The notes beneath the pieces are model-generated. The model was not told where the DNA came from, made no database searches, and was given only the letters and a program-made list of their open reading frames with translations. A program made the translations under genes and the position numbers. From positions 3,629 to 67,628 of the forward strand of contig CABJBK010000015.1 in NCBI GenBank assembly GCA_902363825.1: 64,000 nt of DNA, in the 5' to 3' direction. This document shows, one piece after another, positions 2,739 through 53,482 of the stretch. The stretch is from Lachnospiraceae bacterium (GTDB taxonomy: Bacteria; Bacillota; Clostridia; Lachnospirales; Lachnospiraceae). Position 1 is the stretch's first letter. Each line of letters begins with the position of its first letter.

Positions 2739-4409
2739 TTAGAATAATCCGGTGATCTTGCCGTTTTTGTCAATATCGATATTGTTTGCGGCAGGAACTT
2801 TCGGCAGTCCCGGCATGGTCATGATCGCACCGGTGATGACAACGACAAAGCCGGCACCTGCATTGACATAGACATCCCTAACATTGATGTTGAAACCGGT
2901 CGGACGGCCAAGCTTTTTCTGATCGTCGGAGAAGGAATACTGCGTTTTTGCGATGCAGACCGGCAGATTTCCGAAACCGAGATCGGTCAGTTTCGCAAGC
3001 ATACGGTTTGCCGCCGGTGCGTAGGTGACATCGTCTGCACCGTAGATTTCGGTCGCGATGGTCTTGATCTTGTCCTTTAATGGCATTTCATCCGGGTAGA
3101 GCGGTTTGAAATTGCTTTCTTTTTCCTCTAAAGTCTTTAATACTTTTTCAGCGAGTGCCTTTCCGCCTTCGCCGCCTTTTGCCCATACTTCGGAGAGCGC
3201 GAACTCACAGCCTCTTTCTTCGCAGAAGTTTTTGATAAATTCATATTCTGCTTCGGTATCGGTGACAAAGGAGTTTAAGGTTACCACGATCGGCACACCG
3301 AATTTCTGCAGATTTTCGATGTGTTTTTCCAGGTTGCAGATACCTTTTTTGAGCGCATCCAGATTTTCCTCGGACAGATTTGCCTTGTCAACGCCACCGT
3401 TATATTTGAGCGCGCGGACAGTTGCAACTAAAACGACGGCATCCGGTTTTAAGTCTGCCATACGGCATTTGATATCCATGAATTTTTCCGCACCGAGATC
3501 TGCACCGAATCCGGCTTCGGTGATCACGATATCAGCAAGTTTTAATGCGGTTTTGGTCGCTTTTACACTGTTACATCCATGCGCAATGTTCGCGAAAGGT
3601 CCGCCGTGGACAAATGCGCCGGTGTGCTCTAAGGTCTGAACCAGGTTTGGCTTGATGGCGTCTTTTAAGAGAGCAGCCATTGCACCGACAGCCTGAAGAT
3701 CTTTGGCAGTGACCGGATCTCCGTTGTAATTGTAAGCGACGATGATACGTCCAAGACGTTCTTTTAAATCATCCATGTCAGTTGCAAGGCATAGGATCGC
3801 CATGATCTCGGATGCAACGGTGATGACGAAATGATCTTCACGCACGAAGCCGTCTGCTTTTGCGCCGAGTCCGACAACGATGTTGCGCAGCGCGCGGTCA
3901 TTCATGTCCATACATCTTTTCCATACGATCTGTCTGGTATCGATGTTAAGTGCGTTTCCCTGCTGGATGTGGTTGTCGAGCAGAGCAGCGAGCAGGTTGT
4001 TCGCGGATGTGATGGCATGGAAATCACCGGTAAAATGCAGATTCAAATCCTCCATCGGAACGACCTGGGCATAACCGCCGCCGGCAGCGCCGCCCTTGAT
4101 GCCGAAGCATGGTCCGAGAGAAGGCTCTCTTAATGCGAGCAGGGTTTTCTTTCCAAGTTTGGTCAGAGCATCACCCAGTCCGATGCTTGTTGTGGTTTTT
4201 CCTTCACCGGCAGGTGTCGGGTTGATCGCGGTCATTAAGACCAGCTTTCCGCTTTCATTCTTTTCGGCAGCCTGGCAAAATTCGTTGGAGAGTTTTGCTT
4301 TGTACTTTCCGTAAAGTTCAAGGTCATCTTCTGTGATGCCGTACTGTGCAGCGACATCTTTGATATGGAGCATTTCCGCTTCCTGTGCGATTTCGATATC
4401 TGTTTTCAT
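2739..4409 (-). CDS. fhs: Formate--tetrahydrofolate ligase
   Basis: ATP-dependent synthesis of 10-formyltetrahydrofolate from formate and THF, feeding purine and fMet synthesis (and the Wood-Ljungdahl methyl branch where present). The 556 residues match the usual family length. The P-loop region reads [18 protein letters not shown], and the family-typical segments [20 protein letters not shown], and the C-terminal [11 protein letters not shown] are present. I start it at 4409 (MKTDIEIAQ) rather than the upstream ATG at 4439, because an AAAGGA site precedes 4409 and the extra ten residues are not family-like. A riboswitch controls the gene. No other Wood-Ljungdahl genes lie beside it. Confidence 0.97.
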
Positions 4410-4440
4410 CTTGGTACGTCCTTTCTTTTGCGTAATCATT

Positions 4441-4545
4441 AAAAAAGGGCAGCTTCATAAAATATGAAGTTGCCCAGACGGTCGGCTGTTATCATACCTG
4501 ACCACACAGTGTTATTTCACTTTTTCCCGTCAGTAATCAGGTACT
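4441..4545 (-). promoter_or_regulatory. ZTP (pfl) riboswitch with intrinsic terminator
   Basis: Read leftwards, the leader has a P1 stem TACCTGA (4537-4543) with TCAGGTA (4495-4501), an inner AGTG/CACT hairpin, and the conserved 3' block CAGCCGACCGTCTGGGC. The 5' sequence GACGG can pair with CCGTC in that block, giving the pseudoknot typical of the pfl motif. A strong hairpin (4447-4475) with a run of six U follows and serves as the expression platform. ZTP riboswitches are known upstream of fhs and purine genes and turn expression on when ZTP accumulates under folate shortage. Assignment rests on motif reading, not on a covariance search. Confidence 0.88.
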
Positions 4546-4550
4546 ATTTA

Positions 4551-44548: not shown

Positions 44549-44577
44549 TTGACAGAGAGTGTCTTTATCACTAGAAT
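44549..44577 (+). promoter_or_regulatory. Promoter of the nitrogenase-like operon
   Basis: TTGACA (44549-44554), a 17-bp spacer and TAGAAT (44572-44577), giving a start near 44584, about 66 nt before the first gene. Confidence 0.8.
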
Positions 44578-44592
44578 ATGCAAAGTAAGGCT

Positions 44593-44622
44593 AAACTAAC
44601 CAAAGATAATACAAACTAACCA
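44593..44622 (+). promoter_or_regulatory. Direct repeats, candidate metal-regulator operator
   Basis: AAACTAACCA occurs at 44593-44602 and again at 44613-44622, exactly 20 bp apart, just downstream of the -10. The CTAACC core resembles half of DtxR/IdeR-type sites (TTAGGTTAG...CTAACCTAA). Position after the start point suggests repression. The regulator is not encoded in the window; its identity is inferred. Confidence 0.5.
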
Positions 44623-44649
44623 GAAGCAACAAAAAAGAGGAAGAGAAGC

Positions 44650-45414
44650 ATGAGAAAAATTGCAATTTACGGAAAGGGCGGAATCGGAAAGTCGACAACG
44701 ACCTCCAATGTGGCGGCGGCGTTTTCGGATCTGGGATACCGGGTATTACAGATCGGCTGCGACCCAAAGGCGGATTCCACCAAAAACCTGACAGCAGGAA
44801 AACGGATCACATCGGTTTTGGATGCGATCAAGGAAAAAGGCGATGACCTTGCAGTGGATGATGTGCTTTACCGCGGCTATGGAAATGTATGGTGCGTGGA
44901 AGCGGGAGGCCCGACACCGGGAATCGGATGTGCGGGAAGAGGGATCATCACGGCATTTGAAAAATTAGAGGAGCTTGAGGCTTATGATGTCTGTAAGCCG
45001 GACATCATTTTATATGATGTGCTTGGTGACGTGGTCTGTGGCGGTTTCGCCATGCCGATCCGCGGCGGTTACGCGAAGGATGTCGTCATCGTGACATCGG
45101 GAGAAATGATGTCCTTATATGCGGCTTCCAACATTGCGAGCGCAGTAAAGAACTTCGGAAAAAGAGGTTATGCGCATTATGCGGGAGTGATCTTAAATTC
45201 CAGAAATGTTCCGGATGAGGAAAATACGGTAAGAAAAGCGTTAAAAGAGATCGGCGGAGACATTATCTACACGCTGCCGAGGGACAGTGCGGTCCAGGAA
45301 GCGGAAAACCAGGGAAAAACAGTGGTGGAAGCGCTGCCGGAATCACACATGGCGGAGTGCTACCGGAATCTGGCAAAACAGATCTTAGAAGTGACGACGG
45401 AGGACGAGGAATGA
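44650..45414 (+). CDS. NifH-like Fe-protein ATPase of a nitrogenase-like system
   Basis: 254 residues, closely NifH-like but shorter at the C-terminus. Visible motifs are the P-loop [13 protein letters not shown] (residues 8-20), [15 protein letters not shown] (Cys94) and [14 protein letters not shown] (Cys130). The two Cys would hold the 4Fe-4S cluster between two subunits, and the switch regions are intact. By family knowledge it would pass single electrons, driven by ATP, to its component-1 partner. It is the first gene of a nine-gene operon; its stop overlaps the next start (ATGA). BchL, CfbC and Mar-type proteins share these motifs, so the motif set does not fix the substrate. Confidence 0.93.
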
Positions 45415-46673
45415 TGAATGGCTGCGACTGTTACGGAGAAAAAACACTTCATTATGTATCTGCCGCGCACGGCGGATGGGGGATCGTGCGGATCGCCGCA
45501 CAGGTTCCGGAGAGCCATCAGTTATTTGTATGCCCGTTTGCCTGCGGGCGCCATGGAGCGCTCGGCGGTGAGATGAACGGGATCAAAGACCGGATCTCCT
45601 ATCTCTTTATCACGGAAGCGGATATTGTTTCCGGTGAATTTGAAGAGCTGATCGTAGATGGAGTAAACGAGCTGTTTGAGGCGCTGGAAAAGCAGCCGAA
45701 AGTGCTGTTTGTTTTTACGGCGTGTCTGGATGACCTGCTTGGAACAGATCATGAACCGATCTTAAAGCGGCTTGGGGAACTCTATCCGGATACCCATTTC
45801 AGACATTGTACGATGAATCCGATTTCGCTGGATACGACGCTGCCGCCGGGAATCACGGTGCAGATCAATATGTACAGTCTCTTAGAGCCGGCGTTGGAGC
45901 GAAAAAAGCAGGTAAATCTGCTCGGATGCAATGTCCCGCAGAAAGAGACGGATGATATCCGTGCGGTACTGCAGCAGGCGGGCTATGAACTTGGCGTTCT
46001 TTCCGCGTGCCGGGACTATGCGGAATTTGAAGAAATGGCAAAGGCGGAGTTGAATCTTGTGATCTCGCCGGTCGTACTTGCGGCGGCAAAGAAAATGGAA
46101 AAGAAGTTAGGAATTCCATGGCTGAGACATCTGAGAAGCTATCGGCTGGACGAGATCGATGAGATGTATGCCGAACTTTCGAAACAGCTGAATACCGATC
46201 TTACGGAAGCGGCAGCAGAGTTTCGCAAAAAAGCAGAGGAAAAGATAACAGAAACGCTTGCTGTGATCGGCGATTATCCGGTTGCAGTGGATTATCAGGC
46301 GGTATTAAGACCTTTTAATCTGGCGCTCGCCCTGACGGAATACGGATTTAAAGTCGGTCTGGTCGCAAGCAATGGGATCCCGGCTTTTGAAAAAGAAAGT
46401 GCAAAAAAACTAAAAGAAATGGTGCCGGATATCGTATTTACAGATCCGATGCATCCGCAGTCGGTGCAGTATCCGCATGAAGGCGAAGAATATCTTTGCA
46501 TCGGTTTTGACTGCGGATATATCACAAAATCCAAAAAACTGGTCGAACTGGTTGAGGATGAGGGACTGTTTGGTTATTCCGGTGTCATGGAACTGATGAA
46601 CCGGATGCAGGATGCGTTCCTGACCAAAGCGGATGTAAATAAAATGATCGAGGGGGCGGGACTGATAATATGA
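45411..46673 (+). CDS. Nitrogenase component-1-like protein (NifD-like, short)
   Basis: 420 residues starting at ATG 45411 behind GGAGG. The family signature is visible in [20 protein letters not shown], the Cys-rich [13 protein letters not shown] (Cys41, Cys45), [13 protein letters not shown] (Cys105) and MNPISLDTT. These Cys could bind a P-cluster-like Fe-S cluster. The ligands of FeMo-cofactor (Cys275 and His442 in NifD) have no clear counterpart; the C-terminal GYSGVMELM lines up with the YSGPYHG region but lacks the His before it. It overlaps NifH-like and NifK-like genes by 4 bp at each end. Probably the catalytic subunit of an uncharacterised reductase. Confidence 0.85.
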
Positions 46674-47821
46674 GGAGACTATGTATTGATTTACCACCTT
46701 TTGCACCGGACTATTCCGGCGCCGCATCTGCGTTCTTTGATCTGGGCGGCATTATCGTGATGCATGACGCGTCCGGCTGTACCGGAAATTATACCGGTTA
46801 TGACGAGCCGAGATGGATCGGTTCCAAGTCGGCGGTGTTTTGTTCCGGACTGCGCAGGATCGATGCGGTTATGGGAAATGACGAGGCGTACATCAAAAGA
46901 ACGGTGGATGCCGCAAATATTTTAAATCCGAAGGTGATCGCCTATCTGGGAAGCCCGGTGCCGATGGTGATCGGTATCGACCTGGAGGGTATGGCGTATG
47001 AAACGGAGAATATGACAGGGGTTCCGAGCTTCGGGATCAACACCACCGGAGAAAAATATTATGACAAAGGCGCGTCCGATGTTTTTGTAAAGCTGATCAG
47101 ACGGTTTGCAAAAAAGCCGGTGAAAAAAGAGGACGGCGCGAAAAAAAGCGTGAACCTGCTTGGCATGATCCCGTTGGATGTCGGAAATACCGGAAACTGT
47201 AACCGCATCCTTACATTTGTAAGGGAAAACGGTTTTGAGATCACGGCAGACTTTGCAATGGGACTGTCGGTGGAACAGATTGAGAAATGCCCGTCGGCAG
47301 ATCTTAATATTGTGGTATCGCGCTGTGGGCTCGAGGCTGCCAGATATCTGAAACGCAAGTATCAGATTCCTTATATCTGCGGGGTTCCGCTTGGAGATGG
47401 CGAAAATCTCTTAAAGAAGATAAGAGGGGAGCAGGAGGAAAAAGAACAGAAAAACTCCTGTTCGCGCAGGATACTGATCATCCATGAACAGATCATGGCA
47501 AATTCTCTCAGGGAAAAATTAGAAGAGAACGGATGCACCAATGTGACAGTCGCGTCTTTCTTCGGACTGGAAAAAGAACTGCAAAGAGCCGGGGATCTGC
47601 ACTTAAAAGATGAAGCGATGACAAGAAAGATATTAAATAAGGAAGATTATGATGTCATTGTGGCGGATCCGGAGGTTAAAAAGCTGTTTCGGGAGAGACA
47701 TCCCGCGTTTTTTGCATTGCCGCATGCGGCGGTGTCAAGCAAAGTCCACTGGAATGCATACCGGGAATATCTGGGAGATGACATGGAAGATTTTATAAAA
47801 GAGATAGCTTCTGTCTCATAA
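46670..47821 (+). CDS. Nitrogenase component-1-like protein (second subunit, NifK/NifE-like)
   Basis: 383 residues, again much shorter than NifK or NifE. The N-terminus RLCIDLPPFAPDYSGAASAF leads to MHDASGCTGNYTG, then VFCSGLRRIDAVMGND. Cys5, Cys37 and Cys58 are the likely cluster ligands contributed by this subunit. Three Rossmann-like domains can be traced, with VNLLGMIPLDVGNTGN at the second. The C-terminal third is shortened. Translational coupling to the preceding gene (ATGA) suggests an equimolar heterodimer or heterotetramer. The gene is 36 bp from the binding-protein gene. Confidence 0.85.
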   Translation: MRRLCIDLPPFAPDYSGAASAFFDLGGIIVMHDASGCTGNYTGYDEPRWIGSKSAVFCSGLRRIDAVMGNDEAYIKRTVDAANILNPKVIAYLGSPVPMVIGIDLEGMAYETENMTGVPSFGINTTGEKYYDKGASDVFVKLIRRFAKKPVKKEDGAKKSVNLLGMIPLDVGNTGNCNRILTFVRENGFEITADFAMGLSVEQIEKCPSADLNIVVSRCGLEAARYLKRKYQIPYICGVPLGDGENLLKKIRGEQEEKEQKNSCSRRILIIHEQIMANSLREKLEENGCTNVTVASFFGLEKELQRAGDLHLKDEAMTRKILNKEDYDVIVADPEVKKLFRERHPAFFALPHAAVSSKVHWNAYREYLGDDMEDFIKEIASVS

Positions 47822-47857
47822 TGAGGCAGTGCAAATAAAAAAGAGAGGAAGAAAAAA

Positions 47858-49048
47858 ATGAGGAAAAGAATGAAAAAGTTAATCGCGATGCTCAGCGCGT
47901 CTGCAATGCTCGTCGCAAGTTTTGCGGGCTGCGGACAGACAGCAGCGGAGAGTGACACAAAGGAAGCATCTACACAGGCGGAGATCCAGACAGAGGAAGC
48001 GTCTACCATGCAGACAGCAGCCAATGACACGGATGGGGACACCAGAGTGATCGTGGATGATACCGGAGCAGAGGTAACACTGCCAAAGGAGATCCACCGG
48101 GTCGTTATTTCATCCATCCTGCCACTGCCATCTGTTTACTGCCTGTTTAAAGGATCCGCAGATGACGTGATCGGAATCCATCCGAGCTCCATGGCAGCAG
48201 CGGAAAACTCTTATCTGATCAACGTTTTCCCGGAACTTGAAAATGCGGATACCAGCTTCGTAGAAAACGGAGAAGTAAATATCGAGCGTCTGCTTGAGAT
48301 GAAGCCGGATGTCGTATTCTATGCGGCAGCAAATACCGAAGAACGTGAAATGTATGACAACGCCGGAATCCCGGCAGTTGGATTTTCTACCAGCAACGCA
48401 GGATATGACTGCGTGGAGACCTATGCGGACTGGATCGCCCTGCTCGGCCAGATCTACGGGGAAGAAGAAAAATCCAATGAGATCATCGAGTACGGCAGAC
48501 AGGTAGCATCCGAAATCTCAGCAGTGACAACGGAGATTCCGGATGAGGACAAGCCGAAGGTGTTAGTTTTATTTAACTACAGTGATGGTGTGATCAAGAC
48601 ATCCGGCTCCGGATTCTTCGGACAGTACTGGATCGAAACAGCCGGCGGTATCAACGTGGCACAGGATCTGCAGGGAACACCGGAGATCAACATGGAACAG
48701 ATTTATGAGTGGGATCCGGATATCATCCTGCTTACCAACTTTACTCCATATCAGCCGGATGACCTTTACAACAACACGATCGCACAGGATGACTGGAGCA
48801 ATGTAACTGCAGTAAAGAACAAACAGGTATACAAATTCCCGCTTGGAATGTACCGCTGGTTCCCGCCTGCATCTGACACTCCGCTGGTATTAAAATGGCT
48901 GGCAAAGACCATTCAGCCGGAAGCATTTGCAGACATTGACATGGATCAGGAGATCAAAGATTACTATCAGAAATATTACAACGTAGAACTGACCGATGAA
49001 GATGTAGATACGATCTATCATCCGGCAAGCGCAGCAGCCGGACAGTAA
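47858..49048 (+). CDS. FecB/BtuF-type substrate-binding lipoprotein
   Basis: 396 residues with signal peptide and lipobox SFAGC (Cys25), a Thr/Glu-rich linker to about 60, then the two-lobed helical-backbone fold of iron-siderophore, haem, cobalamin and MolA-type binding proteins: RVIVDDTGAEVTLPKEIHRVV, NIERLLEMKPDVVF, DPDIILLTN and the late YRWFPPASDTPLVL. It sits in the same transcript as the reductase genes, so its ligand is probably a substrate or metal complex needed by them. Ligand identity cannot be read from sequence. Confidence 0.92.
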   Translation: MRKRMKKLIAMLSASAMLVASFAGCGQTAAESDTKEASTQAEIQTEEASTMQTAANDTDGDTRVIVDDTGAEVTLPKEIHRVVISSILPLPSVYCLFKGSADDVIGIHPSSMAAAENSYLINVFPELENADTSFVENGEVNIERLLEMKPDVVFYAAANTEEREMYDNAGIPAVGFSTSNAGYDCVETYADWIALLGQIYGEEEKSNEIIEYGRQVASEISAVTTEIPDEDKPKVLVLFNYSDGVIKTSGSGFFGQYWIETAGGINVAQDLQGTPEINMEQIYEWDPDIILLTNFTPYQPDDLYNNTIAQDDWSNVTAVKNKQVYKFPLGMYRWFPPASDTPLVLKWLAKTIQPEAFADIDMDQEIKDYYQKYYNVELTDEDVDTIYHPASAAAGQ

Positions 49049-49060
49049 GGAAGTTTATTT

Positions 49061-50083
49061 ATGCAAAAAGAAGGAAAAAAGACAGCAGAAAACACAATTT
49101 TTTATATCATCCTTGGAATTTTGCCGTTTCTTGCGGCGCTGATCTGTCTGGGCATCGGCAGATATTCGATGTCGGTGTCAGAGACAGTGACAACGCTGTT
49201 TTCCAGATTTACAAATGCAAAAGTGGATAATACGGCATATACGGTCATCTTTAACGTCAGACTGCCGAGAATTATCCTTGCTGCAGTAGTTGGCGCAGGA
49301 CTTTCCTGCGCCGGTGCAGCATTTCAGGGACTTTTTTCAAACCCGCTTGCAACGCCGGATACACTTGGAGTAGCGAGTGGAGCATCCTTTGGAGCGGTAC
49401 TTGCCATGCTGATCGGCGGAAATATGATCGGCATACAGGGAATGGCACTGATCTTCGGTCTGATCTCCTGCCTGATCACATTTCTGATCGGGCGCAGCAG
49501 CAGACGTGGCAGCATTGTCATGATCGTGCTTGCCGGTCTTGTGGTGTCCTCGGTGTTTGAAGCACTGGTATCACTGATGAAATATGTGGCAGATCCGCAG
49601 GATGAACTGCCGGTCATCACTTACTGGCTGATGGGAAGCATGTCGAGGGCAAACTACAAAAATCTGGTGATGGGTATTCCGTTTATCGTGATCGGGATCA
49701 TCATCATCTTTGCGCTGCGCTGGAGACTTAATATCTTATCGTTCAATGAAGATGAGGCGAGATCTCTTGGCGTGAATGTAAAGATCCTGCGGGTCGCATT
49801 TATCCTCGCGTCATCCATGATCACCGCGTCTTGTGTGTCCATGTGTGGACAGGTAGGCTGGGTAGGACTTTTAGTGCCGCATATTTCAAGAATGATGCGC
49901 GGAAACAATAACTGCAAGGTGATCCCGGTCAGCATCAGCCTGGGCGCATTCTTTATGATCGTCATGGATACCTTTGCAAGGAGCGCAACCGCCTCGGAGA
50001 TCCCGATTTCTATTTTAACGGCGATCATCGGAGCACCGGTGTTTATCGTTCTGCTGAAAAAGACAGGAGGATCCTGGGCATGA
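49061..50083 (+). CDS. FecCD/BtuC-type ABC permease
   Basis: 340 residues with about ten helices of the BtuC/FhuB type. Hallmarks include RLPRIILAAVVGAGLSCAGA, FQGLFSNPLATPDTLGVASG and GQVGWVGLLVPHISRMM with the ATPase-contacting loop. It is the channel for the upstream lipoprotein and overlaps the ATPase gene by 4 bp. A homodimer is expected. Confidence 0.95.
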   Translation: MQKEGKKTAENTIFYIILGILPFLAALICLGIGRYSMSVSETVTTLFSRFTNAKVDNTAYTVIFNVRLPRIILAAVVGAGLSCAGAAFQGLFSNPLATPDTLGVASGASFGAVLAMLIGGNMIGIQGMALIFGLISCLITFLIGRSSRRGSIVMIVLAGLVVSSVFEALVSLMKYVADPQDELPVITYWLMGSMSRANYKNLVMGIPFIVIGIIIIFALRWRLNILSFNEDEARSLGVNVKILRVAFILASSMITASCVSMCGQVGWVGLLVPHISRMMRGNNNCKVIPVSISLGAFFMIVMDTFARSATASEIPISILTAIIGAPVFIVLLKKTGGSWA

Positions 50084-50865
50084 GATTTGAAGTGAGAAAT
50101 GGCAGTTTTGGCTATAAGAACAGAAAGATATTAAACGATATCAGTTTTTCCATTGAGGACGGTGAGATCCTTTCCGTACTTGGCTCTAACGGTGTGGGAA
50201 AGACAACGCTTTTAAAGTGCATGATGGGGCTGCTCCACTGGGAAAAGGGCAGCACCTATATCGATGATGTGGAACTTTCACAGATCAAACAGAAAGAAGT
50301 ATGGCAGAAGATCGCCTATGTGCCGCAGGCAAAAGGCTCCACCTTCGGATTTTCGGTACTGGACATGGTCATGTTTGGAAGAAGCGCGCATCTTGGCACT
50401 TTTTCACAGCCGACCAAAGAGGATCGTGAGATCGCGGAGCAGGCTCTGGAGGATCTTGGAATCACTTATTTAAAAGATAAGATCTGTTCCGAAATGAGCG
50501 GTGGAGAACTGCAGATGGTTCTGATCGCGCGGGCGCTGACGATCCATCCGAATATGCTGGTTTTGGATGAGCCGGAATCCAACCTGGATTTTAAGAACCA
50601 GCTCATTATCTTGGAGACCATTGAAAAACTGGCGAGGGAAAAGAATATCTCGGCGATCGTAAACACACATTATCCGGATCATGCGTTAAAGATCTCAAAC
50701 AAGGCGCTGATCCTAAACCGCGATGGCACGAATTTTTATGGAAATGCGGCAGAGGTCATTAACGAGCCGAACATGGAAAAATCGTTTTCCGTGCGTGTCC
50801 ATATTGATAATTTTACGCTGGATGAACGTGAATACAACTGTGTGGTTCCGTTGAATCTGCTTTAA
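50080..50865 (+). CDS. FecE/BtuD-type ABC ATPase
   Basis: 261 residues with Walker A GSNGVGKTTL, Q-loop YVPQAKG, signature MSGGELQMVLIARAL, Walker B NMLVLDEPESNLDF and switch His NTHYPDH. It powers the permease before it. It completes a classical three-part importer inside the nitrogenase-like operon. ATGA overlap with the permease implies coupling. Confidence 0.96.
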   Translation: MRFEVRNGSFGYKNRKILNDISFSIEDGEILSVLGSNGVGKTTLLKCMMGLLHWEKGSTYIDDVELSQIKQKEVWQKIAYVPQAKGSTFGFSVLDMVMFGRSAHLGTFSQPTKEDREIAEQALEDLGITYLKDKICSEMSGGELQMVLIARALTIHPNMLVLDEPESNLDFKNQLIILETIEKLAREKNISAIVNTHYPDHALKISNKALILNRDGTNFYGNAAEVINEPNMEKSFSVRVHIDNFTLDEREYNCVVPLNLL

Positions 50866-50897
50866 ATTAGAAAAAGAAAAAGAAGAAAGGGAAGACC

Positions 50898-51587
50898 ATG
50901 AGGGTAGTAACGTTTGCAGGCGCACATGCATGCGGAAAGACAGCCGTGATCATGAAGGCAGTGCAGAATCTAAAAGAGCAGGGCATCCATGCTGCGGTCA
51001 TGAAGCTGGACTGTATTTCAAGTGAAGATGATAAGATCTATGAAAGGGTAGGCATTCCGACGGTTAAATATTTGTCCGGGAATACCTGCCCGGATCATTT
51101 TTTTGTGCAGTCCATCGAACAGGCATATGCGTGGGCCAGAGAGCGCGGTGCGGATATGTTAGTTACGGAGAGCGCAGGGCTCTGTGGCAGATGCTCGCCG
51201 CATATCCGGGATATTCCGGCGGTCTGCGTGATCGACTGTCTGTCCGGAATCTCCGCACCGTTTAAGATCGGGCCGATGCTCTGGTACGCGGATTATGTCG
51301 TGATCACAAAGGGAGATCTGGTTTCCCCGACAGAGCGGGAGATCTTTCTTTACAATGTCAAAAAGGCAAACCGGAAAGCGCGTGTCTTTTTTGTAAATGG
51401 CTTAAACGGACAGGGAATTTATAAACTCGATCAGATTTTGCAGACAACCGGAGAAATACAGGCAATCACCGACAAGTATTTAAGATTTACCATGCCGGCT
51501 GCCGTCTGCACATACTGTGCGGGTCAGACAAAAGTAGGAGGAAATGATGCAGTCACCAGAATCAAAGCAGGAATGCTGGAAGAATGA
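50898..51587 (+). CDS. HypB/UreG-like P-loop GTPase
   Basis: 229 residues. The P-loop GAHACGKT spans residues 8-15, and the G4-like motif is TKGD (137-140). The segment TESAGLCGRCSPH holds Cys96 and Cys99, and the C-terminus has CTYC (204-207); these may bind a metal. The order of motifs and spacing resemble the SIMIBI-class metallochaperones HypB, UreG and CobW, which insert nickel or cobalt into enzymes. In this operon it may load or mature a metal centre, which is inference. AGAAAGGGAAG precedes the start, 32 bp after the importer ATPase. Confidence 0.82.
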   Translation: MRVVTFAGAHACGKTAVIMKAVQNLKEQGIHAAVMKLDCISSEDDKIYERVGIPTVKYLSGNTCPDHFFVQSIEQAYAWARERGADMLVTESAGLCGRCSPHIRDIPAVCVIDCLSGISAPFKIGPMLWYADYVVITKGDLVSPTEREIFLYNVKKANRKARVFFVNGLNGQGIYKLDQILQTTGEIQAITDKYLRFTMPAAVCTYCAGQTKVGGNDAVTRIKAGMLEE

Positions 51588-52602
51588 GATTGAAAATCTT
51601 CCGGCAGAACAGATCTGTACCAGATATACCGAAGTTTTGGAATTATTCAAACAGTTTGAAATTCCGGTCATTTATCCGGATGTGACGGTGAGAGAACTGA
51701 TTGCGGCATTTCCGGATCATGTGTTCCGGGATCGCGGCACGACAAGGCAGGAACTCTATGAAAAAGTAAAAACCTGTATGGCAGACACCGGAGATACAAA
51801 GGACGAGACACCGGAAAAAATCGAGACGATCACCATTGTCGGCGGTCATGACAAAAACGGACAGGCGGAACAAAAAGAGGTCTGTCTTCACCGGGGTGAG
51901 GTCGTCTGTGTGGTCGGAAAGACCGGATCCGGAAAATCCCGGTTTCTGGAGGATATTGAATATATTGCCGATGGGGATACCGTCACAGGGCGCAGGATCT
52001 GGATGAATGGCAGACCGGTCGGAGAAAAGCAGCGCGAGGCCTGGGAAAATCATTTCTGCGCGTATCTCTCCCAGACGATGAATTATGTGATGGAGCTGAC
52101 CTGCGCGGAATTTCTGCAGATCCATATTTCCTGCCATACGCCGGAAAAAGAGAAAGAACGCGTGGAAGCACAGATCGACCGGATCCTCGCATGCGCGAAT
52201 TCCATTGCGGGGGAACCGTTTACCAGAGAATCCTATATCACGCAGTTGAGCGGTGGACAGTCGAGAGCACTGATGATCGCGGACATAGCCTATATATCCG
52301 ACGCGCCGGTCGTTCTGATCGATGAACCGGAGAATGCCGGGATCGACTGCGAGGAAGTGATCCGTCTTCTGGCGGGAAAGGAAAAGATCGTGCTTATTTC
52401 CACACACGATCCGCTGATCGCGCTTTCCTGTGAAAAGAGGATCGTGATCCGCAACGGTGGGATCGCAAAGCTGCAGCAGCGCAGCGCATGTGAGAAAGAA
52501 TGGAAAGTGTATCTGGAAGAAGTAAACCAGAAAATGAGGATGATTCGGGGGAAAATACGGAATGGGGAAAATATTATGGAACAGCCACAGGGCATCCTAT
52601 GA
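51547..52602 (+). CDS. ABC ATPase with unusual N-terminal domain and no permease partner
   Basis: 351 residues. Residues 1-95 form a helical module (LPAEQICTRY, FEIPVIYPDVTVRELIAAFP) that loosely recalls DUF1858-like domains. The ABC domain follows: Walker A GKTGSGKS (124-131), Q-loop YLSQ, signature LSGGQSRALMIAD, Walker B VVLIDEPENAGID and switch STHDP. No membrane partner is nearby, so it may be a soluble ABC protein that drives conformational or metal-loading work. AGGAGG lies 5 bp before ATG 51547; a second ATG at 51544 is also possible. It overlaps the GTPase gene by 41 bp. Confidence 0.82.
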   Translation: MQSPESKQECWKNEIENLPAEQICTRYTEVLELFKQFEIPVIYPDVTVRELIAAFPDHVFRDRGTTRQELYEKVKTCMADTGDTKDETPEKIETITIVGGHDKNGQAEQKEVCLHRGEVVCVVGKTGSGKSRFLEDIEYIADGDTVTGRRIWMNGRPVGEKQREAWENHFCAYLSQTMNYVMELTCAEFLQIHISCHTPEKEKERVEAQIDRILACANSIAGEPFTRESYITQLSGGQSRALMIADIAYISDAPVVLIDEPENAGIDCEEVIRLLAGKEKIVLISTHDPLIALSCEKRIVIRNGGIAKLQQRSACEKEWKVYLEEVNQKMRMIRGKIRNGENIMEQPQGIL

Positions 52603-53482
52603 TCTGTGGGCGGATCTGCCCAGTCCGATCAAGACGACATTTCGTAACAGCTGTTACGAACAGATCAAAAAACTGTATCAGCAGACTGGCTATAAATATC
52701 AGGCGTATATCCCGGCGGAACCGGCGGGCGGAGCAGACGCGGAGGATATGATCATGAACATGCCGCTGCAAAAGATCCCGGGCGCATATCTTGCGATGGG
52801 ATTTGGAGAGTGCGCGCACCGGAAATTCAAAGACCGCCTGCTGGTGCCGGAGGCATACTGCCACAGGGAGAATTACGCGTATTTCCCAGAAGTGATGGTC
52901 ATAGATAAAAAGCGGCTTGGAAAACGAAAGCTGCCGGAGACCTACGAGGCACTCACCGATGTTTCTTATCGTGGGGAGATCTGCCTGATCGGACAGATGG
53001 ATGATATGGATCCGCTGATCCCGGTATATCTGTACCGGAAATTTGGGGAGAAAGCCGTGCGGGCATTTGTAGAAAATATAAATTGCTGTGCTGCGCCGAT
53101 CGAGACGATCCGGCATATCGGAAAAGCGGGAAATACCTATGGCTCTGTTTTTGTGATGCCGTATTTGTTTGCGCAGATCTGTCTGGAAAATCCATACGCC
53201 AGGGTACAGATCCCCGCAGATGGCGCAGCGGCGGAAAACTTTATTTTGTTTTGTACAAAAGAAGCTTACCGGCAGGGCTGCACCAAAAACATATTAAACC
53301 AGGCACCCGTGCGCAGAGTTTTTGAAGAAAAGTATTTTCCACTCTGTGATTCCCCGATGTTAAAGATCGATGCGGCGTGCAAAGACCGGGTGATCTGTGA
53401 GGAACTCGCAAGGGTTCGCGCTATCATAAGGGATACCAGAAAACGGCAGGAACGTTTTAGCAAAGACGCAGCAGACTCTTGA
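52562..53482 (+). CDS. Binding-protein-like protein without signal peptide
   Basis: 306 residues. The pattern resembles class II periplasmic binding proteins for iron or anions (VMVIDKKRLGKRKLPETYEA, YRGEICLIGQMDDMDPLIPVYL, GNTYGSVFVMPYLFA), yet there is no signal peptide or lipobox, so it is probably cytosolic. Several Cys and His occur (FGECAHRKF, EAYCHREN, NINCCAAPIE). It overlaps the preceding ABC ATPase by 41 bp and is the last gene of the operon. It may bind and hand over an imported ligand inside the cell, which is inference. The 3' end overlaps the remnant membrane gene on the other strand by 26 bp. Confidence 0.8.
   Translation: MGKILWNSHRASYDLWADLPSPIKTTFRNSCYEQIKKLYQQTGYKYQAYIPAEPAGGADAEDMIMNMPLQKIPGAYLAMGFGECAHRKFKDRLLVPEAYCHRENYAYFPEVMVIDKKRLGKRKLPETYEALTDVSYRGEICLIGQMDDMDPLIPVYLYRKFGEKAVRAFVENINCCAAPIETIRHIGKAGNTYGSVFVMPYLFAQICLENPYARVQIPADGAAAENFILFCTKEAYRQGCTKNILNQAPVRRVFEEKYFPLCDSPMLKIDAACKDRVICEELARVRAIIRDTRKRQERFSKDAADS

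What the first reader, a model, noticed from the sequence alone, without database searches (positions are those of the whole stretch)
44549..53482. Nine-gene nitrogenase-like reductase operon coupled to a metal/tetrapyrrole-type importer
Seen: NifH-like, two short component-1-like proteins, a FecB/BtuF-type lipoprotein, permease and ATPase, HypB/UreG-like GTPase, partnerless ABC ATPase and a signal-less binding-protein-like protein lie on one strand, with 4-bp or 41-bp overlaps or short gaps, behind one promoter. Known: nitrogenase-like enzymes reduce N2, protochlorophyllide, chlorin (BchXYZ), Ni-sirohydrochlorin diamide (CfbCD) or methylthio-alkanes (Mar). None of these has this gene set to my knowledge. 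No nifB/E/N/U/S, no chl/bch and no cfb genes are present. Inference: an ATP-driven reductase acts on, or needs, a ligand brought in by the importer, for example a corrinoid, haem-like or metal-chelate compound.
Basis: partly seen in the sequence, partly recalled or inferred. Interest (0 to 1): 0.88.

Follow-up and report, generated by a model that had tools for sequence, protein, structure and literature searches.

The report
Nitrogenase-like reductase with metal-type importer
A bacterium carries a nine-gene operon in which an uncharacterised relative of nitrogenase sits with a metal- or chelate-type importer, and the same six-gene core, often with the same control site, recurs in many anaerobes, which points to a widespread and still unsolved metal-handling enzyme.

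Summary
In detail: nine same-strand genes (H, D, K, FecB-type lipoprotein, permease, ATPase, HypB/UreG-like GTPase, orphan ABC ATPase, signal-less binding protein; 44650-53482) follow one promoter-like element. They belong to the nitrogenase superfamily but fall below the cut-offs of the characterised families with models. The core is conserved: among 69 loci found with D, all three importer genes lie within 8 kb in 51. New as far as my searches show: (1) a shared operator-like site, GTTAG-N6-CTAAC, lies before H in 7 of 7 window-clade loci and 38 of 56 others; (2) one subclade (9 loci) is tied to Mo/W by Moco riboswitches (4 loci) or MoeA-like genes (5) and lacks that site; (3) another (12 loci) sits with HydE/HydF or HypCDEF, and its genomes have [FeFe]-hydrogenase domains but no HydG above cut-off (0 of 12). 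This context favours handling of metals or metallocofactors over a corrinoid/haem substrate, but no ligand is shown. Dos Santos et al. 2012 already noted nitrogenase-like genes beside ABC transporters and hydrogenase maturases: a new variant of a known, unsolved kind.

The parts
44549..44577 (+). Promoter-like element TTGACA-17-TAGAAT
   Evidence: 11 of 12 consensus positions
44585..44600 (+). Operator-like palindrome GTAAGGCTAAACTAAC (one mismatch to GTTAG-N6-CTAAC), at the expected start of transcription
   Evidence: such a site lies before H in 7 of 7 loci of the window's clade
44650..45414 (+). H: NifH-like ATPase, P-loop and the two [4Fe-4S] cysteine motifs
45411..46673 (+). D: NifD/NifE-like component 1 (420 aa); C45 and C105 invariant in 90 of 90 rows
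46670..47821 (+). K: NifK/BchB-like component 1 (383 aa); C37 in 61 of 61 rows, C58 in 59
47858..49048 (+). FecB-type binding lipoprotein (nearest solved: 4ovk, HI_1472)
49061..50083 (+). FecCD-type permease
50080..50865 (+). FecE-type ATPase
50898..51587 (+). HypB/UreG/CobW-like GTPase
51544..52602 (+). ABC2: ABC ATPase without a permease partner in the operon
52562..53482 (+). SBP6: SBP_bac_6 domain protein without an evident signal peptide

Best explanation
An inducible metal-acquisition or metallocofactor operon. The lipoprotein, permease and ATPase import a metal complex (chelate, metallophore or metal oxyanion). H, a NifH-type ATPase, passes low-potential electrons from ferredoxin or flavodoxin to one [4Fe-4S] cluster held between D and K. 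DK lacks the FeMo-co cysteine and uses that cavity, as protochlorophyllide reductase does, to bind and reduce the imported complex, so that the metal can be released or remodelled. The GTPase, ABC2 and SBP6 act in the cytosol to hold and hand on the metal. Shown: gene content, conservation, fold class, conserved cysteines, loss of the FeMo-co cysteine, shared operator-like site. Inferred: the cluster type, import of a metal complex, reduction as the reaction, hand-over by the trio, the electron donor.
For: Conserved H-D-K-SBP-PERM-ATP core. D C45 and C105 in 90 of 90 and K C37 in 61 of 61 rows; no Cys at the FeMo-co cysteine position in 90 of 90. Folds nearest NifEN, MoFe protein and DPOR. SBP nearest 4ovk and HI_1472. 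The GTPase-ABC2 pair also stands by FecBCD, methyltransferase and DUF364 'heavy-metal chelation' genes elsewhere in some of the same genomes, and in Petroclostridium that operon carries the same exact site as HDK (L097 and L029). DUF3793/flavodoxin genes carry the site (L025, L046, L192). Sister clades are tied to Moco riboswitches or MoeA-like genes and to HydE/HydF/HypCDEF. NikA/NikB-type importer genes stand by HDK in some spirochaete loci.
Against: No ligand is shown. The metal links come mostly from sister clades; genomes of the window's own clade show no MoaA above cut-off (0 of 6) and no Moco riboswitch (0 of 6), so Mo/W for Moco is unlikely there. The permease and ATPase rank corrinoid-named models first (all below cut-off). 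Reducing a chelate seldom needs ATP-driven electrons. The trio is by HDK in only 6 of 69 loci.
Confidence: 0.48

Rival explanations
1. Corrinoid or haem-like tetrapyrrole reductase: the importer brings in a tetrapyrrole, and HDK reduces its ring or metal, as DPOR, COR and CfbCD do.
For: DPOR, COR and CfbCD act on tetrapyrroles (recalled, and PMC11423573 passages); K is close to BchB in fold (TM 0.71-0.75 for most DPOR B chains); permease and ATPase rank BtuC- and corrinoid-ATPase-named models first; H scores 337 bits against CfbC (cut-off 402).
Against: SBP is far from BtuF and IsdE; no cobalamin riboswitch at the 5' end of an HDK operon in 50 loci; sister clades associate with Mo/W and hydrogenase maturation.
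Confidence: 0.2
2. Scaffold or maturase: DK is a NifEN-like platform on which an imported metal is built into a cofactor, with H as ATP-driven inserter and the GTPase as metallochaperone.
For: D's two best fold hits are NifEN chains; sister clades stand with HydE/HydF/HypCDEF or under Moco riboswitches; Dos Santos et al. 2012 proposed coupling of metal transport to cofactor assembly.
Against: No client enzyme or radical SAM gene among the nine; FeMo-co cysteine absent; the fold margin over MoFe protein and DPOR is tiny.
Confidence: 0.22
3. Assimilatory reductase for a non-metal small molecule, like Mar (thioethers) or Isr (isethionate).
For: These are Group IV HDK enzymes, and Isr lies near transporter genes (PMC11423573 passages).
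Against: Mar and Isr come as a BHDK set with a radical SAM protein, absent among the nine genes; the importer is FecBCD-type, not Ssu/Tau type.
Confidence: 0.1

Closest known systems
Group IV nitrogenase-like proteins of Dos Santos et al. 2012 (Methanocorpusculum, Desulfitobacterium, Coprococcus, Dorea clades)
   Same: Two conserved cysteines in the D-like and one in the K-like subunit; ABC transporters nearby in some; hydrogenase maturation proteins nearby in Coprococcus (PMC3464626)
   Different: Their sequences were not compared here; the nine-gene set, the operator-like site, the Moco riboswitch clade and the lack of HydG are not in the parts I read
DPOR (BchL/BchN/BchB)
   Same: HDK layout and fold; no FeMo-co cysteine
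   Different: BchL 203 of 345 bits needed, BchB 55 of 490; DPOR uses an aspartate ligand (PMC3464626), here K has an invariant Cys; importer and GTPase genes present
CfbCD (F430 biosynthesis)
   Same: H scores highest against CfbC
   Different: Below cut-off; Cfb has no K subunit (PMC11423573), here K is present
NifEN
   Same: Nearest fold for D by E-value
   Different: D has 45 of 505 bits needed for NifE; no nifB in the operon
Mar and Isr
   Same: Group IV HDK enzymes
   Different: No radical SAM partner among the nine genes

Membership tests
Nitrogenase superfamily (component 2 plus two component 1 subunits) | NifH-type ATPase with P-loop and two cluster cysteines | tested here: met
   window met; P-loop in 83 of 83 H rows, each cysteine motif in 82 of 83
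Nitrogenase superfamily (component 2 plus two component 1 subunits) | Paired Oxidored_nitro subunits | tested here: met
   above Pfam cut-off for D and K; folds
True nitrogenase (Nif/Vnf/Anf) | FeMo-co cysteine of NifD | tested here: not met
   no Cys at the aligned position in 90 of 90 rows; the His ligand was not tested
True nitrogenase (Nif/Vnf/Anf) | Score above curated NifH/NifD cut-offs | tested here: not met
   nifH 334 of 394; nifD 18.6 of 654
DPOR / COR | Score above BchL/BchX/BchB cut-offs | tested here: not met
   203 of 345; 193 of 331; 55 of 490
CfbCD | CfbC cut-off; no K subunit | tested here: not met
   337 of 402; K present
Mar / Isr | Radical SAM partner B beside HDK | tested here: not met
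   none among the nine genes
Mar / Isr | Place in a tree with MarD/IsrD | not tested
   No such sequences were in the tree
Group IV (phylogenetic) | Placement in the published Group IV tree | not tested
   The tree held only 8 nif rows from Acetobacterium, Petroclostridium and Treponema genomes as outsiders
Class III (FecBCD/BtuCDF) importer | Peripla_BP_2 SBP, FecCD permease, ABC ATPase | tested here: met

The most novel reading that the evidence does not exclude
This HDK family is a general ATP-driven reductase for low-molecular metal complexes that feed metallocofactor assembly. In one subclade, with HypCDEF or with the importer, it takes over HydG's task of providing the iron-CO-CN synthon for HydE/HydF, so that those bacteria make [FeFe]-hydrogenase without HydG; in another it serves Mo/W cofactors; in the window's clade it serves a metal of its own regulon.
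Probability: 0.14. Interest if true: 0.95.

Novelty: new variant of a known kind. Interest (0 to 1): 0.74.

Why it matters
Many Group IV nitrogenase-like enzymes have no known function. This family recurs in gut and rumen anaerobes, often with the same control site, and has clade-specific contexts that make its function directly testable. If HDK replaces HydG in one subclade, H-cluster assembly has a second route; if it reduces metal complexes, anaerobes have an ATP-driven metal-acquisition enzyme.

Tried and rejected
Rejected or weakened: true nitrogen fixation (FeMo-co Cys absent); viral or plasmid origin (no relative confirmed in viral contigs with a single-protein query that finds close relatives only; no plasmid match by megablast); corrinoid regulation (cobalamin riboswitches only at L195 1035-1260 and L196 9429-9604, neither at the 5' end of the HDK operon on its strand); Mo/W as the purpose in the window's clade (MoaA above cut-off in 15 of 43 genomes, 0 of 6 of G001, G002, G022-G025; RF01055 in 9 of 43 with filters that lose weak matches, none of those six). 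A DtxR/IdeR-type regulator was considered for the site because of its half-sites (recalled), but its spacing differs. A Crp-like gene (one member tested: HTH_Crp_2 43 bits) occurs in 13 of 69 loci, in 12 of them within about 3 kb of H, and is the better guess, untested. A weak own-model riboswitch hit at L021 (E 0.18) was taken as chance. No tree of H or K was built. The D tree is a quick one, rooted at the midpoint; it warns of long-branch joins that include clade H rows and of unlike letter make-up in nine rows.

Literature seen: PMC3464626 section 11 in full plus passages; passages only of PMC11423573, PMC13067680, PMC2408646, PMC2954201, PMC9431212; other papers as search listings only. 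Statements that something is not in print rest on searches, of open-licence PMC papers only; no supplement was read.
Full report
OBSERVATION. Nine same-strand ORFs lie at 44650-53482, with short gaps or overlaps behind a TTGACA-17-TAGAAT element at 44549-44577. Pfam supports each named type. D most likely starts at the ATG at 45411, giving a 4-base overlap with H.

WHAT THE PROTEINS ARE. H has the P-loop and both cluster cysteine motifs; so have nearly all relatives (83 of 83, 82 and 82 of 83). It falls below every curated cut-off listed: CfbC 337 of 402, NifH 334 of 394, BchL 203 of 345, BchX 193 of 331. D and K are short. D C45 and C105 align with two of NifD's P-cluster cysteines and are invariant in 90 of 90 rows; a further N-terminal Cys lies within 30 residues before GGW in 58 of 90; the FeMo-co cysteine position never holds Cys in 90 rows. 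K C37 is invariant in 61 of 61 and C58 present in 59. NifD's His ligand was not tested. AlphaFold models (D pLDDT 82.8; K 85.6) match NifEN, MoFe proteins, DPOR and methylthio-alkane reductase with TM about 0.55-0.75. The design looks like a one-cluster reductase with an empty cofactor cavity; this last step is inference.

CONSERVATION. A scan of genomes with two short patterns gave 69 loci, in Ruminococcus, Lachnospiraceae, Treponema, Acetobacterium, Desulfosporosinus and others. H is within 3 kb in 64, K in 65, all of SBP, permease and ATPase within 8 kb in 51, some in 12, none in 6. The GTPase with ABC2 and/or SBP6 lies by HDK in 6 of 69 (L002, L012, L018, L021 downstream; L032, L041 upstream). 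Among 21 genomes searched, the GTPase matched in 14, above 150 bits in 12 (my count). At several other places in those genomes GTPase and ABC2 stand together, some with FecBCD, methyltransferases, DUF364 or SBP6-like genes. One such SBP6-like protein carries a DUF1858 domain (L096) and another begins alike (L095); none listed shows an evident signal peptide (my reading). [quoted passage not shown]

TREE. In the D tree (99 rows: 91 D, 8 nif) the window groups with L001-L006 (7 rows, support 100), inside 28 rows with many Treponema (100). Two other clades stand out: clade M, 9 rows (98), and clade H, 12 rows (99).

CLADE M AND MO/W. Moco riboswitches (RF01055) stand before operons in L058, L065 (two), L066 and L194; an own model found the same five and nothing else strong in 98 sources, the window among them. 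In L058 the riboswitch heads the divergent methyltransferase-FecBCD operon, not HDK itself. The other five members (L051, L052, L054, L068, L193) have a MoeA-like gene in the locus (L068's tested: MoeA_N 93 bits, but below NCBIfam's MoeA cut-off). Among the 88 labelled loci no other has a MoeA-like gene. The clade was read off the tree after these marks were known. Regulski et al. 2008 does not name these genes in the passages I saw.

CLADE H AND HYDROGENASE MATURATION. Of 12 loci, 6 have HypC, D, E, F-like genes beside or between HDK sets (L199, L200, L202, L203, L204, L206), 3 have FecBCD instead (L195, L196, L198), and 3 are on short contigs with neither. HydE stands in 7 and HydF in 4 of the 12 loci, and none of these genes in the other 76 labelled loci; a cut-off HydF follows K in a fifth (G173). 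One member each was tested: HydF, HydE, HypD and HypE above NCBIfam cut-offs, HypC and the HypF C-terminus above Pfam cut-offs. In the 12 genomes: [NiFe] large subunit 0, HypD 6, HydG above cut-off 0, [FeFe] domain 12, of which 11 reach 200 bits. Of four clade-H enzymes looked at, all have the first two active-site motifs and two the third by my pattern. Among HydF-positive genomes of the 62 searched, HydG is above cut-off in 0 of 8 clade-H and 17 of 19 others (Fisher 2e-5, not corrected for kinship). The two exceptions are G025, which is L006 in the window's own clade, and G034. Against a strong reading: all clade-H genomes come from one family sample, in which HydG is above cut-off in only 39 of 200 (HydF was not searched in the rest), and they are drafts of unknown completeness. 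Missing HydG in some Clostridium, and HydG-free activation in vitro, are discussed in PMC9431212 (passages). Dos Santos et al. 2012 noted two linked NifHEN-like sets, and hydrogenase maturation proteins, in Coprococcus.

OPERATOR-LIKE SITE. GTTAG-N6-CTAAC with at most one mismatch lies within 260 bases before H (299 for the window) in 7 of 7 window-clade loci (shuffles 0.06), 38 of 56 others (0.28), 0 of 8 in clade M and 0 of 11 in clade H (Fisher 9e-9, not corrected for kinship). Exact sites number 66 in 1.60 Mb against 0.56 expected, and only spacer 6 is enriched (the loci were chosen for HDK or the GTPase, so the count reflects that choice). The window's site is 44585-44600 with one mismatch; within 64 kb it is not remarkable by itself (2 found, 0.78 expected), so it rests on its conserved place. 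It lies at the expected start of transcription, which suits a repressor. Other exact sites precede SBP genes, DUF3793/flavodoxin genes (L025, L046; near flavodoxin in L192), an operon with FecBCD, methyltransferase-like, GTPase and ABC2 genes (L097), MMPL- and ABC-type exporter genes and an FMN_bind protein. The regulator is unknown.

MECHANISM AND VERDICT. The best reading is an ATP-driven reductase for an imported metal complex, in a metal or metallocofactor regulon. Against it: no ligand data, and no sign of Moco synthesis in the window's clade. The tetrapyrrole reading remains possible. It is a new variant of a known, unsolved kind.

Noticed in passing
L036 genome (G012) and L042 genome (G014); L135: Genomes without MoaA above cut-off carry a strong Moco riboswitch (77 and 74 bits); in G014 it precedes a membrane protein that reads like an ECF S component (no Pfam match) and a MobA-like NTP transferase gene, which suggests salvage of a Moco precursor.
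   Followed up: partly
window 4465-4547 (-): ZMP/ZTP riboswitch upstream of a formate-tetrahydrofolate ligase gene (2739-4439, -).
   Followed up: no
L195 6674-6773 (-): Azaaromatic (yjdF) riboswitch just past the SBP gene of an HDK operon.
   Followed up: no
L053, L060, L064: In these spirochaete loci NikA/NikB-type (peptide/nickel) importer genes stand divergently by HDK, with the GTTAG-N6-CTAAC site in between.
   Followed up: partly
L094, L095, L096: GTPase-ABC2 modules lie near hybrid-cluster-protein genes (Prismane domain, 593 bits, in L094; the other two by reading).
   Followed up: partly
G014 (L246): An [FeFe]-hydrogenase with canonical motifs in a genome where neither HydF nor HydG reached the cut-off.
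   Followed up: no
L009, L011, L046: Heavy-metal P-type ATPase gene downstream of the HDK-importer operon.
   Followed up: no
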